Shown one piece after another: positions 29,406 through 33,250 of a DNA stretch of 34,231 nucleotides. Origin of the DNA: Lachnospiraceae bacterium (lineage in GTDB: Bacteria; Bacillota; Clostridia; Lachnospirales; Lachnospiraceae); the NCBI GenBank assembly GCA_024405155.1, contig JAKSPC010000023.1:1-34231 (forward strand), given 5' to 3'. A model generated the notes under the pieces. That model saw only the letters and a program-made list of their open reading frames with translations. It was not told where the DNA came from and searched no databases. A program made the translations under genes and the position numbers. Position 1 is the first letter of the stretch, and each line of letters starts with the position of its first letter.

Positions 29406-30866
29406 TCAGTTTTTCACAGCAACGAATCTCTGCTTCTGACTCTGCGGTCTTTCCGGTATCGTCATTTTTATCAGACCCTTTTTAATCATGGGATTCACAT
29501 AAGCCGACATCGCATACGGTACTGTTCCGATTTTGAGATGCTCTGCTATTTCCTGTCTGCTTCTTGGAATATCCAGAAACATCAGCAGGTCTTTTTCTGC
29601 CCTGCTTAAATCACAATCGAAAGCCGTCTTTTCCTGTTCCGTATGTACATCGTTATAAAGAGTTACGGTAAATGATCCCCGCTCATCAGAAAATACCGGT
29701 TCCTTCAATCCATGTTCTTTCATGCATCTTCTGATAGTCGGAATTCCGGAGTACCTGTTTTCTGTGATTTTCATAATTTCCAGTGCCGTGACCAGAACCG
29801 GATTTCTGGTGTCAGGCTGCATTTTCCCCAGCTGATCTATCTGCATCCGCCCATAGATCCCGCCGGGATTCTTTATTTCGATCCGGTCCGGATACATCCG
29901 GATCTGTATTGGCATCCCTTCTGTATAAATACTGTAATCTCTGTGTACTAATGCATTGAGCACTGCCTCTCTGATGGCAGCGACCGGATACTCCGTGCGG
30001 TCCTCACGCTTTCCTGTGTCAGGATTTACAATGGTTTTCGTCTTCATATTCTTTCTGGTAAAGGCTATTGCCTGATCCAGCATCTCAGGAATATTCCCCT
30101 CGATCCTCCGGTTATCTATAAACCGTTCTCCTGACTCACCCGTCTCACCGTATTCATTTCCCGGCAAAACGACCGCAGTAATACAAAGCTGCGGAAAGAA
30201 CGCCTGAGGGTATCTGCAGAACAGCATCACAGAACTTAAGGTGACTTCTCCTTTTCTGGTAATACTCATCAGTTCATAGATCTCTTCATCCGTCAGAACG
30301 CTTATATTCCTCTTTTCTGCTTTCAAACGGTCTATATATTCATCTAGCAGTGAACGGTCCAGCATTTCGAAAGAGGCTCTCGGAACAGGGCGGATATCGT
30401 CCTGATATTTCTTCCGGAAAGCTTCATAACTATATACTTCATATTCAGTCATCGGCTCATCGCTGTCACCAACGCGCACGTAAGAGCCCTTTAACCGTCC
30501 TTTACCCTGATAATAGCAAGGCCTGTCAGAAACATCGATTCCGGGGATTTCTGCAGACACGAAGGCTTTTCCATCTTTTTCCGCAACCGTAAGAAGTGGT
30601 CTTATAACAGGTTCCATCTGAAGGCATTGTTCATTGATTCTCTTTTGTATCTCCTGTGGATCATATACTCCGCACTCATTATAGTTATCATCTTCATCAA
30701 CTCCAAAGATGATAGTTCCGCCATCATCCTGATTTGAAAAGGAAGAAAGGGTATCATACAGTCTTTTCGGACATTCTTTTTCAGCTGCTTTCAGTTCCAG
30801 TGTCCGTGTCTCACACTTTTGTATCCGGATCTCATTTAACTTTTCAAGAAGTTCTTCACTTGTCAT
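29406..30866 (-). CDS. Schlafen/AlbA_2-domain protein with RecG-like C-terminus
   Basis: A 486-residue protein. The N-terminal AlbA_2 (Schlafen-type divergent AAA_4) domain shows ETRTLELKAAEKECPKRL, FSNQDDGGTIIFGVDED and a GSYVRVGDSDEPM strand. The middle has the HATPase_c_4 part (AIREAVLNALVHRDYS, IEIKNPGGIYG). A C-terminal winged-helix follows (LSRAEKDLLMFLDIP, RSRQEIAEHLKIG). Such proteins are often annotated as ATP-dependent DNA helicase RecG-related transcriptional regulators but lack helicase motifs; some act in phage defence or as regulators. AGGAGG precedes the start, which lies inside a long inverted repeat. It has a consensus promoter. Confidence 0.88.
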   Translation of the reverse strand: MTSEELLEKLNEIRIQKCETRTLELKAAEKECPKRLYDTLSSFSNQDDGGTIIFGVDEDDNYNECGVYDPQEIQKRINEQCLQMEPVIRPLLTVAEKDGKAFVSAEIPGIDVSDRPCYYQGKGRLKGSYVRVGDSDEPMTEYEVYSYEAFRKKYQDDIRPVPRASFEMLDRSLLDEYIDRLKAEKRNISVLTDEEIYELMSITRKGEVTLSSVMLFCRYPQAFFPQLCITAVVLPGNEYGETGESGERFIDNRRIEGNIPEMLDQAIAFTRKNMKTKTIVNPDTGKREDRTEYPVAAIREAVLNALVHRDYSIYTEGMPIQIRMYPDRIEIKNPGGIYGRMQIDQLGKMQPDTRNPVLVTALEIMKITENRYSGIPTIRRCMKEHGLKEPVFSDERGSFTVTLYNDVHTEQEKTAFDCDLSRAEKDLLMFLDIPRSRQEIAEHLKIGTVPYAMSAYVNPMIKKGLIKMTIPERPQSQKQRFVAVKN

Positions 30867-31013: not shown

Positions 31014-31056
31014 AACACGGCAGGCGGACCCGCTTTGAGTCATCATCTGCCGTGTT
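31014..31056 (-). terminator. Hairpin after the ART-partner gene
   Basis: Leftward AACACGGCAG / CTGCCGTGTT (10-bp stem, 23-nt loop) is followed by TCTATT, about 45 bp beyond the 31100 stop. The U-tract is weak, so read-through into the AlbA gene is possible. Confidence 0.55.
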
Positions 31057-31099
31057 CTATGTACTCTATTCTTATTTGGTATTCGCCGCCAGGACATTT

Positions 31100-31579
31100 T
31101 CATGCCCCTTTTCGTATTCTCCGGAAAACCTGATACTGTTTTTCGATGCTCATGTCAAAGGATATATCTTTTGCCTCAAGGATCCTCTCTATTGCCTGAG
31201 CACAATCCATTGTATGACAGGCCGGATACATTTCTCTCAGTTCTTTCGGCTTGACCATCCTGTATGCCTGCACGGATGACAGCTCATATGCATAGGAAAA
31301 ATACCGATAAATATACCCGATCCAGAAAAGTTCGTTCGCCGAGTATTTTACAGATCCGTAAGATGTGACACCATATTGCTCTTCCACTCTTTCGATCATA
31401 TCCCTCGGTGTCATTACGGTATCCAGCGAATATCCAGAATCCAGAAATCTCGCCGTTTCGCTGTGCATAAACCGACGAATGAATATTTCCGAACTGCAGG
31501 AAAGCACTTTCTGCGACAGCTCAAATGCCTGCGCCTGCAGATCACACAGTATCAGCCCTGTATTGTCAATTGTCTTCAT
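31100..31579 (-). CDS. Partner of the HTH-ART gene, putative antitoxin/toxin component of unknown family
   Basis: A 159-residue soluble protein. I recall its core (SSEIFIRRFMHSE, LFWIGYIYRYFSYAYELSS, MVKPKELREMYPACHTMD, AQAIERILEAK) from unnamed Firmicutes proteins next to DUF3990 genes. It has no signal or membrane segment and is mostly helical. It overlaps the upstream HTH-ART gene by ATGA, so production is coupled. By position it is the likely cognate partner (antitoxin or substrate adaptor) of the ADP-ribosyltransferase-like protein. No catalytic motif is visible, and the function is not established. Confidence 0.75.
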   Translation of the reverse strand: MKTIDNTGLILCDLQAQAFELSQKVLSCSSEIFIRRFMHSETARFLDSGYSLDTVMTPRDMIERVEEQYGVTSYGSVKYSANELFWIGYIYRYFSYAYELSSVQAYRMVKPKELREMYPACHTMDCAQAIERILEAKDISFDMSIEKQYQVFRRIRKGA

Positions 31580-32448
31580 CGGCCTTCCTCCGCTACGGTA
31601 AGAATCTCGTCAATATATTTCCCCTGTCCTCTGTATTTGATCCTTGCCAGTTTTACTTTATCTTCCCCCAGCCTGCTTTCGCTGCTTCTGACATCCGCAT
31701 AATATTTTCGCTCATTCTGTGCAATATACACACGTTCTACCGGCTGAACCTTCTTTACTGCCTTTTCTGTAAGGAAAACGTACTGCATGCCCAGATTGAT
31801 CGCAGACAGACAGTGCTCGCACTGTGCATCGGTTATTTCCCCCGCTATGAAGGAGTTTATGATCTGAAACATCCGGTTGTCCGCAATGGGAGCAATGATG
31901 TAATCCGCATTGCCCGCATCAGCAGCCAGTTTCTGCACGGTCGGATGATCACGGTAAGCATCCAGTGTGCCCCTGAAATAAGCGATTGTCATCATCCAGT
32001 CCCGGTCTACGTGATACTCTTTTGATTTCAGGCCGCTTACGTCAAAATCCAGATAGTAAACCGAAGATTTTTCAAACCCCGACACAAAAGACACAGCCTG
32101 TTCGTACGATTCCCCGGCATAGAATCCCTGGCCGAAATCGTTATTGTTCCTTCCGGCTTTTACACTCAGCTCACCTGTGATCTCACCTTTTGCCCCATGA
32201 AACAGAAGTTTATGTTCGGGAGATAAATCCTCTCTCCAAAGCATTTCCTTCAGTCGGTTGATCCGGATATTTTTTTCAAACGCAAAGGCGTATGTCTTTT
32301 CCATAACAGCAGCAGAGGGCTTGAAAAGTTCCTGCTCCTGCCTCGAAACAGTGACCAGTTCCACACCAACCTGCTCCGCCAACTCTGCCTGTGTCAGCGA
32401 CAGCAGCTCACGTATACACTTTAAATCTTCTGTAAAACGATACTCCAT
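31576..32448 (-). CDS. HTH-DUF3990 fusion: XRE domain plus ADP-ribosyltransferase-like domain
   Basis: A 290-residue protein. Residues about 8-65 form an XRE HTH (LKCIRELLSLTQAELAEQVG, VTVSRQEQELFKPS). Residues about 80-235 match DUF3990: LLFHGAKGEI, NNNDFGQGFYAGESYEQAV, ADYIIAPIADNRMFQIINSF and GMQYVFLTEKAV. The order gives an H-Y-Q triad (H84, Y110, Q222) like PARP/Tpt1-type ADP-ribosyltransferase folds; DUF3990 belongs to that group as I recall it. I chose the start at 32448 (GAGAGGCG upstream); the ATG at 32475 lies inside the operator. Fusion of repressor and enzyme in one chain, with a coupled partner gene, suggests an autoregulated toxin-antitoxin-like system. Confidence 0.82.
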   Translation of the reverse strand: MEYRFTEDLKCIRELLSLTQAELAEQVGVELVTVSRQEQELFKPSAAVMEKTYAFAFEKNIRINRLKEMLWREDLSPEHKLLFHGAKGEITGELSVKAGRNNNDFGQGFYAGESYEQAVSFVSGFEKSSVYYLDFDVSGLKSKEYHVDRDWMMTIAYFRGTLDAYRDHPTVQKLAADAGNADYIIAPIADNRMFQIINSFIAGEITDAQCEHCLSAINLGMQYVFLTEKAVKKVQPVERVYIAQNERKYYADVRSSESRLGEDKVKLARIKYRGQGKYIDEILTVAEEGR

Positions 32449-32459
32449 AACGCCTCTCG

Positions 32460-32515
32460 AACTTGTTTTAGTCATTTACTAAAACAAGTTTAATCAGGCG
32501 TGCCGTCTTTGTCAA
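32460..32515 (-). promoter_or_regulatory. Promoter with 31-bp perfect palindromic operator
   Basis: Leftward TTGACA (32515-32510), a 17-bp spacer and TAAACT (32492-32487). The -10 overlaps a palindrome at 32460-32490 with 13-bp perfect arms (AACTTGTTTTAGT / ACTAAAACAAGTT) and a 5-bp centre. Transcription would start inside the palindrome, which is ideal for repression by the XRE domain encoded next. Confidence 0.9.
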
Positions 32516-32716: not shown

Positions 32717-32754
32717 TTGACAAAAGCAGTCTTCATAATTATCATATAATTATG
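32717..32754 (+). promoter_or_regulatory. brnTA promoter with overlapping operator; leaderless start likely
   Basis: TTGACA (32717-32722), a 17-bp spacer and TATCAT (32740-32745). An inverted repeat CATAATTAT-CAT-ATAATTATG (32734-32754) covers the -10 and the BrnT ATG. The predicted transcription start falls at or within a few bases of the ATG at 32752, and no Shine-Dalgarno precedes it. Confidence 0.78.
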
Positions 32755-33033
32755 AAATTCGAGTGGAATACCGAAAAAGCAGAGATAAACAATAAAAAAC
32801 ACGGCGTATCGTTTGAAGAGGCTTCGAGCGTCTTCTATGATGACAACGCCCTGATGCGTGATGATCCGGATCATTCTGAAGAAGAGGATCGATTCATAAT
32901 TCTTGGACTTAGTGAAGCAGCAAACATTCTGGTGGTATGCCATTGTTACAGAATGAGCGACGAAATTATCAGAATCATCTCTGCGAGAAAAGCTACCCGG
33001 CAGGAAACAAATCAGTATAACGAAAGAGGGTGA
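32752..33033 (+). CDS. brnT: BrnT family toxin (RelE-like ribonuclease)
   Basis: A 93-residue protein with the BrnT signature: FEWNTEKAEINNKKHGVSFEEA, VFYDDNA, RFIILGLSEAANILVVCH and RIISARKATRQE. BrnT toxins are RelE-fold RNases that cleave RNA and stop growth; BrnA neutralises them and the complex represses the operon. The ATG at 32752 has no ribosome site and almost no predicted leader. The antitoxin gene follows after 4 bp. Confidence 0.94.
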   Translation: MKFEWNTEKAEINNKKHGVSFEEASSVFYDDNALMRDDPDHSEEEDRFIILGLSEAANILVVCHCYRMSDEIIRIISARKATRQETNQYNERG

Positions 33034-33037
33034 CAAA

Positions 33038-33250
33038 ATGAGAGAAGAATATGATTTTTCAAATGCAATAAAAAATCCATACGCACAGAAATTGAAAGCC
33101 GAGAAACAGCAGGTCACCATGAACATGAATACAAGTACGGTCACGTACTTTAAAAACATGTCTGCTCAGACCAATATTCCCTACCAGAATCTGATCAACC
33201 TTTATCTTGATGAATGCGTGAGGGAAGAAAAGAAATTAAAGTTTGTATAA
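33038..33250 (+). CDS. brnA: BrnA family antitoxin (RHH type)
   Basis: A 70-residue protein. An N-terminal toxin-binding segment (DFSNAIKNPYAQKLKAEK) precedes a ribbon-helix-helix (QVTMNMNTSTVTYFKNMS, IPYQNLINLYLDECV). It has a strong ribosome site (GAGGGTGA) overlapping the brnT stop region, in contrast to the unled toxin, which would favour antitoxin excess. It is inferred to bind the palindrome over the promoter. Confidence 0.92.
   Translation: MREEYDFSNAIKNPYAQKLKAEKQQVTMNMNTSTVTYFKNMSAQTNIPYQNLINLYLDECVREEKKLKFV

What the first reader, a model, noticed from the sequence alone, without database searches (positions are those of the whole stretch)
31100..32515. Autoregulated HTH-ADP-ribosyltransferase-like gene with coupled partner
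An XRE repressor domain is fused to a DUF3990 ART-like domain with an H-Y-Q triad (H84, Y110, Q222). A 159-residue unnamed partner is coupled by ATGA, and a 31-bp perfect palindrome overlaps the -10 and transcription start. This has all marks of a toxin-antitoxin or abortive-infection module in which the enzyme carries its own repressor. Neither the chemistry nor the partner's role is established as far as I know.
Basis: partly seen in the sequence, partly recalled or inferred. Interest (0 to 1): 0.8.

Follow-up and report, generated by a model that had tools for sequence, protein, structure and literature searches.

The report
Toxin-like enzyme carrying own repressor
A bacterium carries a compact two-gene unit in which a probable NAD-using toxin enzyme also holds the DNA-binding part that likely switches the unit off, while in sister systems that part sits on the partner protein; this makes a toxin-antitoxin-like unit likely, though nothing has been tested in cells.

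Summary
Window 31100-32515 (minus strand) holds a Cro/C1-type HTH fused to a DUF3990 ADP-ribosyltransferase (ART) domain, then a 159-aa partner overlapping by ATGA, behind a promoter overlapped by a 31-bp inverted repeat (14 of 15 pairs, not perfect). H84, Y110 and Q222 are invariant in 50 of 50 aligned sequences. The repeat is conserved upstream of 44 of 51 such loci, window included, with 4 hits elsewhere in 437 kb: good comparative evidence for autoregulation.

Both proteins match PADLOC's candidate phage-defence pair PDC-M42, so the kind is catalogued; my paper searches listed no study of it. New here: sister systems carry the HTH on the partner instead, with a different operator; of 80 ART-partner pairs none has both. 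The partner resembles two small proteins found with DUF3990 elsewhere, one DUF3791. The best-matching ARTs nearly always have the partner (35 of 36), whereas partners without intact ART occur.

Best reading: a toxin-antitoxin-like module, ART as toxin, partner as antitoxin, repressor on the toxin in this clade.

The parts
31576..32448 (-). HTH-ART gene (290 aa from the likely start ATG 32448; the mechanical ORF runs to ATG 32475 inside the operator)
32257..32430 (-). N-terminal Cro/C1-type HTH, residues about 7-64
   Evidence: (HTH_3 E=0.0046, below cut-off), profile from relatives, hhalign to the class-II HTH Prob 97
31747..32205 (-). DUF3990 (PF13151) ART domain
32197..32199 (-). H84 codon, first triad position
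   Evidence: invariant
32119..32121 (-). Y110 codon, second triad position
   Evidence: invariant
31783..31785 (-). Q222 codon, third triad position
   Evidence: invariant
31100..31579 (-). partner gene, 159 aa, PDC-M42B-like, probable antitoxin
   Evidence: PADLOC PDC-M42B E=7.5e-10; paired with the ART in relatives
31355..31528 (-). partner N-half (residues 18-75), like the unnamed ~80-aa protein found next to DUF3990 in DUF3791-type loci
   Evidence: hhalign Prob 87 and 83; control against A1 0.4
31172..31333 (-). partner C-half (residues 83-136), DUF3791-like
   Evidence: hhalign Prob 61 and 82; control 0.3; PF12668 hit in 5 of 54 partners, best 4.7e-7, not in the window's own protein
32460..32490 (-). 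operator AACTTGTTTT-N11-AAAACAAGTT, 14 of 15 pairs
32487..32515 (-). promoter TTGACA-17-TAAACT; the -10 overlaps the operator by 4 bases

Best explanation
A type II toxin-antitoxin-like module. The DUF3990 domain is the toxin: an H-Y-Q ART that uses NAD+ to modify an unknown target. The partner binds and neutralises it. The HTH on the toxin dimerises on the operator over its own -10, so HTH-ART, free or in complex, represses the operon. In class I (this clade) the DNA-binding part therefore sits on the toxin; in class II it sits on the antitoxin and uses a different operator. Release of the ART when the partner is lost or inhibited, for example on phage infection, would stop growth. Shown by sequence: architecture, invariant triad, near-obligate pairing, co-inheritance, operator type matched to HTH type, partner homology. 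Inferred: catalysis, toxicity, neutralisation, DNA binding, trigger.
For: Triad invariant 50/50 and 25/25; DUF3990 is listed in Pfam's ART clan (passage of PMC7955679). Pairing: of the 36 best ART rows (E<=4.5e-57) 35 have the partner directly downstream; the exception is L154. Partners with no ART beside them: L009, L155, L160, L161; with only an ART fragment: L006, L028, L097. Operator (<=3 mismatches) in 44 of 51 class-I loci within 250 nt upstream, 4 other hits in 437 kb. Class II: HTH on the partner, own operator in 19 of 21 loci, 0 in 65.6 kb background, 0 of 49 class I. HTH on one protein or the other, never both: 50 HTH-ART/partner, 22 ART/partner-HTH, 8 with neither, 0 with both. ART and partner distances correlate (r=0.88 in 40 close loci, 0.95 in 48; 0 of 2000 permutations each).
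Against: No activity, toxicity or binding is shown. Q rather than E at the third position leaves the chemistry open. A regulator with an NAD-sensing ART fold would show the same pairing and operator. The operator was not found in 7 of 51 class-I loci (L010, L013-L017, L051). The 36 ART rows were found with a profile made mostly from ARTs that have the partner, which favours the pairing count. The distance correlation does not exclude plain common descent of two neighbouring genes. The partner-without-ART count is small (7). No ORF fusing ART and partner was found.
Confidence: 0.68

Rival explanations
1. NAD-responsive repressor, not a toxin: the ART fold binds NAD or ADP-ribose, or modifies HTH-ART itself or the partner, and so tunes repression of its own operon.
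For: HTH and ART are one chain; the operator is conserved; Q stands in the third triad position.
Against: The same ART domain occurs without HTH and with an HTH-bearing partner; no constant neighbour to regulate was seen, although four extra operators lie elsewhere in the loci; partners are found without intact ART.
Confidence: 0.15
2. In-cis antitoxin: the HTH neutralises the ART in the same chain and the partner is a sensor or chaperone.
For: HTH domains are described as neutralising folds, and a single-protein toxin-antitoxin is known (passages of PMC10440598 and PMC4803016).
Against: Class-II ARTs and a few others (L018, L020, L025, L158) have no HTH but keep the partner.
Confidence: 0.1
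3. Phage-defence system of another mechanism (not classical toxin-antitoxin), as PADLOC's candidate listing of PDC-M42 suggests.
For: PADLOC matches for both proteins; class-II-like ARTs in 7 short, unannotated faecal phage records.
Against: PADLOC's listing is a prediction; the neighbour scan shows few defence genes and had no background.
Confidence: 0.07

Closest known systems
PADLOC PDC-M42 (A: DUF3990 ART; B: partner), a candidate phage-defence pair
   Same: Both window proteins match: M42A E=1.7e-8, M42B E=7.5e-10. A class-II pair (L024) matches M42A at 5.1e-47 and M42B at 9.7e-6.
   Different: The window ART scores better with sibling models PDC-M13B (1.9e-14), M13A (7e-13) and M10A (1.8e-10) than with M42A. 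PADLOC's thresholds were not available. Candidate only.
DUF3990 with DUF3791 loci (probably PADLOC PDC-M13/M10, an inference; PDC-M13 is counted 3324 times in 6530 rumen genomes, passage of PMC13356809)
   Same: Same ART family with small partner genes; the window's partner halves resemble them. L110 has gene order ART, small protein, DUF3791, the order of the two partner halves.
   Different: Partners are separate short proteins and the ARTs examined have no HTH.
Xre-RES toxin-antitoxin
   Same: An Xre antitoxin and RES toxin whose complex binds a palindromic promoter repeat (abstract of PMC12204516); that RES is an ART-like fold is listed as an ART-clan family in PMC7955679.
   Different: There the HTH is on the antitoxin; here it is on the ART.
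CmdTAC
   Same: H-Y-[EDQ] ART toxin with antitoxin in phage defence (passages of PMC11618068).
   Different: Three genes including a chaperone; 'helix-turn-helix' occurs 0 times in its text.
Tripartite toxin-antitoxin loci (omega-epsilon-zeta, PaaR2-PaaA2-ParE2)
   Same: The regulator is not the antitoxin (passages of PMC4803016).
   Different: There the regulator is a third protein; here it is a domain of the ART.

Membership tests
DUF3990 / ART superfamily, H-Y-[EDQ] clade | PF13151 above gathering score | tested here: met
   95.2 bits against 32.2
DUF3990 / ART superfamily, H-Y-[EDQ] clade | His, Tyr and E/D/Q at the three triad positions | tested here: met
   H84, Y110, Q222 invariant in 50/50; clade definition from passages of PMC7955679. 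That these columns are the triad rests on motif position, not on a structure
DUF3990 / ART superfamily, H-Y-[EDQ] clade | split beta-sheet ART fold | not testable with these tools
DUF3990 / ART superfamily, H-Y-[EDQ] clade | NAD-dependent transferase activity | not testable with these tools
   needs an assay
PADLOC PDC-M42 | M42A and M42B encoded side by side | tested here: inconclusive
   both hit side by side, but M13B/M13A/M10A score higher on the ART and PADLOC thresholds were not available
Type II toxin-antitoxin | two-gene unit of constant partners | tested here: met
   35 of the 36 best ART rows with the partner; distances correlate
Type II toxin-antitoxin | autoregulation at a palindromic operator | tested here: inconclusive
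   operator conserved in 44 of 51, binding not shown
Type II toxin-antitoxin | DNA-binding domain on the antitoxin (usual, not universal) | tested here: not met
   HTH is on the ART here; on the partner in 22 class-II pairs
Type II toxin-antitoxin | toxicity neutralised by the partner protein | not testable with these tools
   needs expression test
DUF3791 (PF12668) | Pfam match of the partner above 25 bits | tested here: not met
   window partner has no DUF3791 hit at E<=0.05; 5 of 54 aligned partners hit, best 4.7e-7

The most novel reading that the evidence does not exclude
A toxin-antitoxin lineage in which the operon's repressor is a domain of the toxin instead of the antitoxin, so repression follows toxin dose; the DNA-binding domain sits on opposite subunits, at opposite ends, in two sister clades, each with its own operator, around an antitoxin assembled from two small DUF3791-like proteins.
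Probability: 0.5. Interest if true: 0.72.

Novelty: new variant of a known kind. Interest (0 to 1): 0.57.

Why it matters
In textbook type II modules the antitoxin carries the DNA-binding repressor (review passages). If here the toxin itself is the repressor the feedback runs the other way, and sister clades with the HTH on either subunit give a natural pair for testing what that does. It would also give DUF3990, DUF3791 and PDC-M42 a testable role (PDC-M13, a probable sibling, is counted thousands of times in rumen genomes), with exact residues and a 31-bp site to test.

Tried and rejected
The window ART had no match at 1e-5 in plasmids or phages. In viral contigs 4 loci matched; none had this partner by my profile, and two of them (L076, L077) are cut off inside the match. 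The class-II partner was found in 3 plasmid records, one with DUF3990 annotated beside it.

Papers: one search returned padlock-probe papers. DUF3990 gave 4 papers; I saw passages of PMC7955679 and one passage of PMC4524185, the other two only as listings. DUF3791 gave 1 (listing). PDC-M42/M13/M10 or guilt-by-embedding gave 5; I saw passages of PMC13356809, the rest as listings. Searches looked for ART toxin-antitoxin and toxin-borne HTH; their lists (20 of 51, 16 of 16, 3 of 3, 12 of 58 shown) showed no such system by title and abstract start. PMC12204516 and PMC12457610 were seen as abstract and outline; PMC11618068, PMC4803016 and PMC10440598 as passages.

Considered and rejected: polymorphic secreted toxin (the chain is HTH plus ART only; DUF3990 does occur at the end of Rhs5 of a T6SS); pseudoenzyme (triad invariant); prophage gene (no phage family among 10 window proteins scanned, nor among the 9; a weak test, 19 proteins of the window; a transposase is present). 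A defence island was not shown: 147 neighbour ORFs (of 158 chosen, from 29 of the 44 loci; at least 110 and at most 900 aa, up to three a side) gave scattered hits (mad3 3, BrxD 2, AbiLi 1, PDC-S01 2-3; first 25 of 50 families shown) without background. Iterative profile drift could have created the DUF3791 link, so it was repeated with separate alignments and a control; but several rows of the small-protein alignment A6 were picked's own list, so A6 is not fully independent, and pairwise probabilities are not calibrated against a database. A per-locus shuffle test for any palindrome was weaker than the motif counts: 11 of 21 class-II and 32 of 49 class-I loci reached p<=1/60.

Rows dropped: partner hits covering under 60 profile positions; ART hits covering under 150 or above E=1e-10 and partner hits above 1e-6; in the tree 8 partnerless ARTs under 190 aa. 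Of the 8 ART/partner pairs without HTH, L019 and L072 are cut upstream, L063 and L068 are N-terminally shortened class-I copies, and L018, L020, L025 and L158 remain. Tree support for the class split is moderate (80 and 93, quick method, long branches meet).

Full report
WHAT IS THERE. On the minus strand of 31100-32515 a promoter (TTGACA-17-TAAACT, 32515-32487) is overlapped by an inverted repeat (32460-32490), followed by an HTH-DUF3990 gene and a 159-aa partner overlapping by ATGA. DUF3990 matches at E=3.9e-27. The likely start is ATG 32448, not 32475: relatives align from there; in 40 of 51 class-I loci (window included) the codon at my anchor is a start codon, 37 of these 40 with a Shine-Dalgarno-like motif and 3 with another in-frame ATG upstream; the other 11 loci were anchored by rough offsets and are not informative. 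ATG 32475 lies inside the operator.

THE ENZYME. In A1 (50 rows, identities to the window 30-67%) H84, Y110 and Q222 are invariant, with R100, D104, W151, R159, D182 and others. Two rows of A1 (L018, L020) lack the HTH, so no HTH column could be invariant there; D8, A24, E38 and Y53 in the HTH are at 90% or more. In the wider set A3 (25 rows, including HTH-less ARTs and two viral-contig copies) the three triad columns remain invariant. DUF3990 is placed in Pfam's ART clan, and H-Y-[EDQ] is one of three ART clades, by passages of PMC7955679. No solved structure is a relative by sequence: the window protein gave nothing better than E=0.1, a DUF3791-type ART nothing, and the A3 profile only non-significant hits (6 up to E=10, best 0.2 and 0.27 to unrelated proteins; four entries of the diphtheria toxin, an H-Y-E-clade ART, at 1.2 to 4.6 over profile positions 10-50).

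THE PARTNER. No Pfam or NCBIfam family; PADLOC PDC-M42B at 7.5e-10. Invariant residues in 54 rows: F19, S40, D47, W86, G88, Y89, Y91, R92, H122. Separate alignments of DUF3791 proteins (A5, 6 rows) and of an unnamed ~80-aa protein (A6, 11 rows), both from DUF3990 loci of another type, align to the C-half (Prob 61 and 82) and the N-half (87 and 83), against 0.3 and 0.4 for the ART control. Five of 54 partners hit PF12668, best 4.7e-7, but not the window's. L110 has the gene order ART, small protein, DUF3791, the order of the two partner halves. I infer that the partner arose by fusion of two such genes; A5 and A6 also resemble each other (Prob 57), so a duplication is possible. Several A6 rows were chosen from the iterated profile, so that half of the test is not fully independent.

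WHERE THE HTH SITS. Among 96 distinct ART domains in the loci fetched, 50 are HTH-ART with an HTH-less partner (class I, window included), 22 have an HTH-less ART and a partner with a C-terminal HTH (class II), 8 have a partner and no HTH on either, 0 have both; 15 ARTs and one HTH-ART had no partner by my profile. The HTH-ART without partner is L043, cut at the contig end. Of the 15, 8 are under 190 aa (the DUF3791-type loci) and 7 are L075, L078, L120, L154, L156, L157 and L159, L159 having a weak partner hit (2.5e-6). L075's N-terminus looks HTH-like by eye but was not scored as HTH. Sampling is not even: 39 of the 50 class-I ARTs came from one search seeded with the window protein. The ART tree puts class I with L018, L019 and L020 on one side and class II with L025 and L158 on the other (support 80 and 93, quick method). 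The two HTHs belong to one superfamily (Prob 97).

OPERATORS FOLLOW THE HTH. Class I: AACTTGTTTA-N11/12-TAAACAAGTT with at most 3 mismatches lies within 250 nt upstream in 44 of 51 loci (window included), in 22 of them two or three times, most often 36-39 nt apart; 4 other hits occur in 437 kb of the same loci. It is missing in L010, L013-L017 (mostly distant) and L051, which shows a repeat of the same shape by eye. Class II: TAYNNCYNNRGNNRTA with at least 6 of 8 symmetric pairs lies upstream of 19 of 21 testable loci (missing in L087, L103; L022 cut), 0 times in 65.6 kb of background, in 0 of 49 class-I loci and 0 of 6 with neither; the class-I operator was found in no class-II locus. Both patterns were written after looking at these upstream regions, so 44 of 51 and 19 of 21 are descriptive; the background and cross-class counts are the control.

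PAIRING AND LOSS. In 295 genomes of the order, 36 places match the ART profile at E<=4.5e-57 (the cut was chosen after seeing the list, and the profile was made mostly from ARTs with the partner). Thirty-five have the partner directly downstream. L154 does not; it lacks the conserved LG before Q, but so does L103, which has a partner. Below that cut G157:C27 has a partner, G253 and G165 carry instead a ~160-aa protein with an FHTIG/YHTIG motif, and G249's two copies have weaker partner hits (8e-14, 2.5e-6); most lower rows were not followed. Partners without any ART nearby: G234:C6 (L009), G242:C8 (L155), own C15 (L160), G157:C23 (L161); with an ART fragment: own C1 (L006), G044:C13 (L028), G229:C127 (L097). 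Not counted: L086 and one L017 copy at edges, and L021, L027 and L079, which are partial partners. In the genus 5 of 25 genomes have a partner-family match, 3 of them (own, G299, G302) with class-I-like scores. Class-I records are named mostly Lachnospiraceae but also Anaerovibrio, Holdemanella and Longicatena, which is consistent with horizontal spread. No neighbour is constant among the 147 ORFs scanned. No ORF fuses ART and partner.

HOW IT WORKS. Most likely the ART is a toxin, the partner its antitoxin, and the HTH on the toxin represses the operon. Shown by comparison: pairing, constraint on the triad, operator matched to HTH. Inferred: catalysis, toxicity, neutralisation, binding, and any phage trigger. 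[quoted passage not shown] the toxin as carrier of the repressor is not in the passages I saw.

NOVELTY. The pair falls within or next to PADLOC's PDC-M42, so the kind is catalogued as a candidate. The HTH placement on opposite subunits with matching operators, and the two-part origin of the partner, I found in no listing. The library holds no preprints and lacks most subscription papers, so this is weak evidence of absence.

Noticed in passing
window 32752-33250: BrnT toxin gene (PF04365 E=2e-28) on the other strand, about 260 nt from the operator, followed by a 70-aa protein weakly like CopG/BrnA antitoxins (1.6e-5, below cut-off): a second toxin-antitoxin pair next door.
   Followed up: no
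window 29406-30866: AlbA_2/Schlafen plus RecG-like C-terminal protein (PF04326, PF13749, Fic-like_C); PADLOC pAgo and Aga models also match it, probably through shared domains.
   Followed up: no
own genome C6, C46, C1, C15 (L001-L003, L006, L160): More DUF3990/partner loci: two intact class-II pairs, one partner with a truncated ART, one orphan partner, one DUF3791-type locus.
   Followed up: partly
L075:5974-6867: 145-kb viral contig with an ART related to class I (41% in the ART domain) and an HTH-like N-terminus by eye, but a different 117-aa ORF downstream and no partner.
   Followed up: partly
phage records H4-H10: Seven short unannotated human-faecal phage records encode class-II-like ARTs, 24-50% identical to L024's.
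   Followed up: no
L078, L156, L157: ARTs followed by a 150-160-aa protein of another partner type with an FHTIG/YHTIG motif.
   Followed up: no
L056 and L074, 2572 nt upstream of the ART start; L011 +1312; L062 +1498: Extra class-I operators away from the ART promoter, possibly other genes under the same repressor.
   Followed up: no
window 31014-31060: Inverted repeat AACACGGCAG/CTGCCGTGTT downstream of the partner, read from the sequence; the terminator scan found 1 site in the region against 1.2 expected.
   Followed up: no
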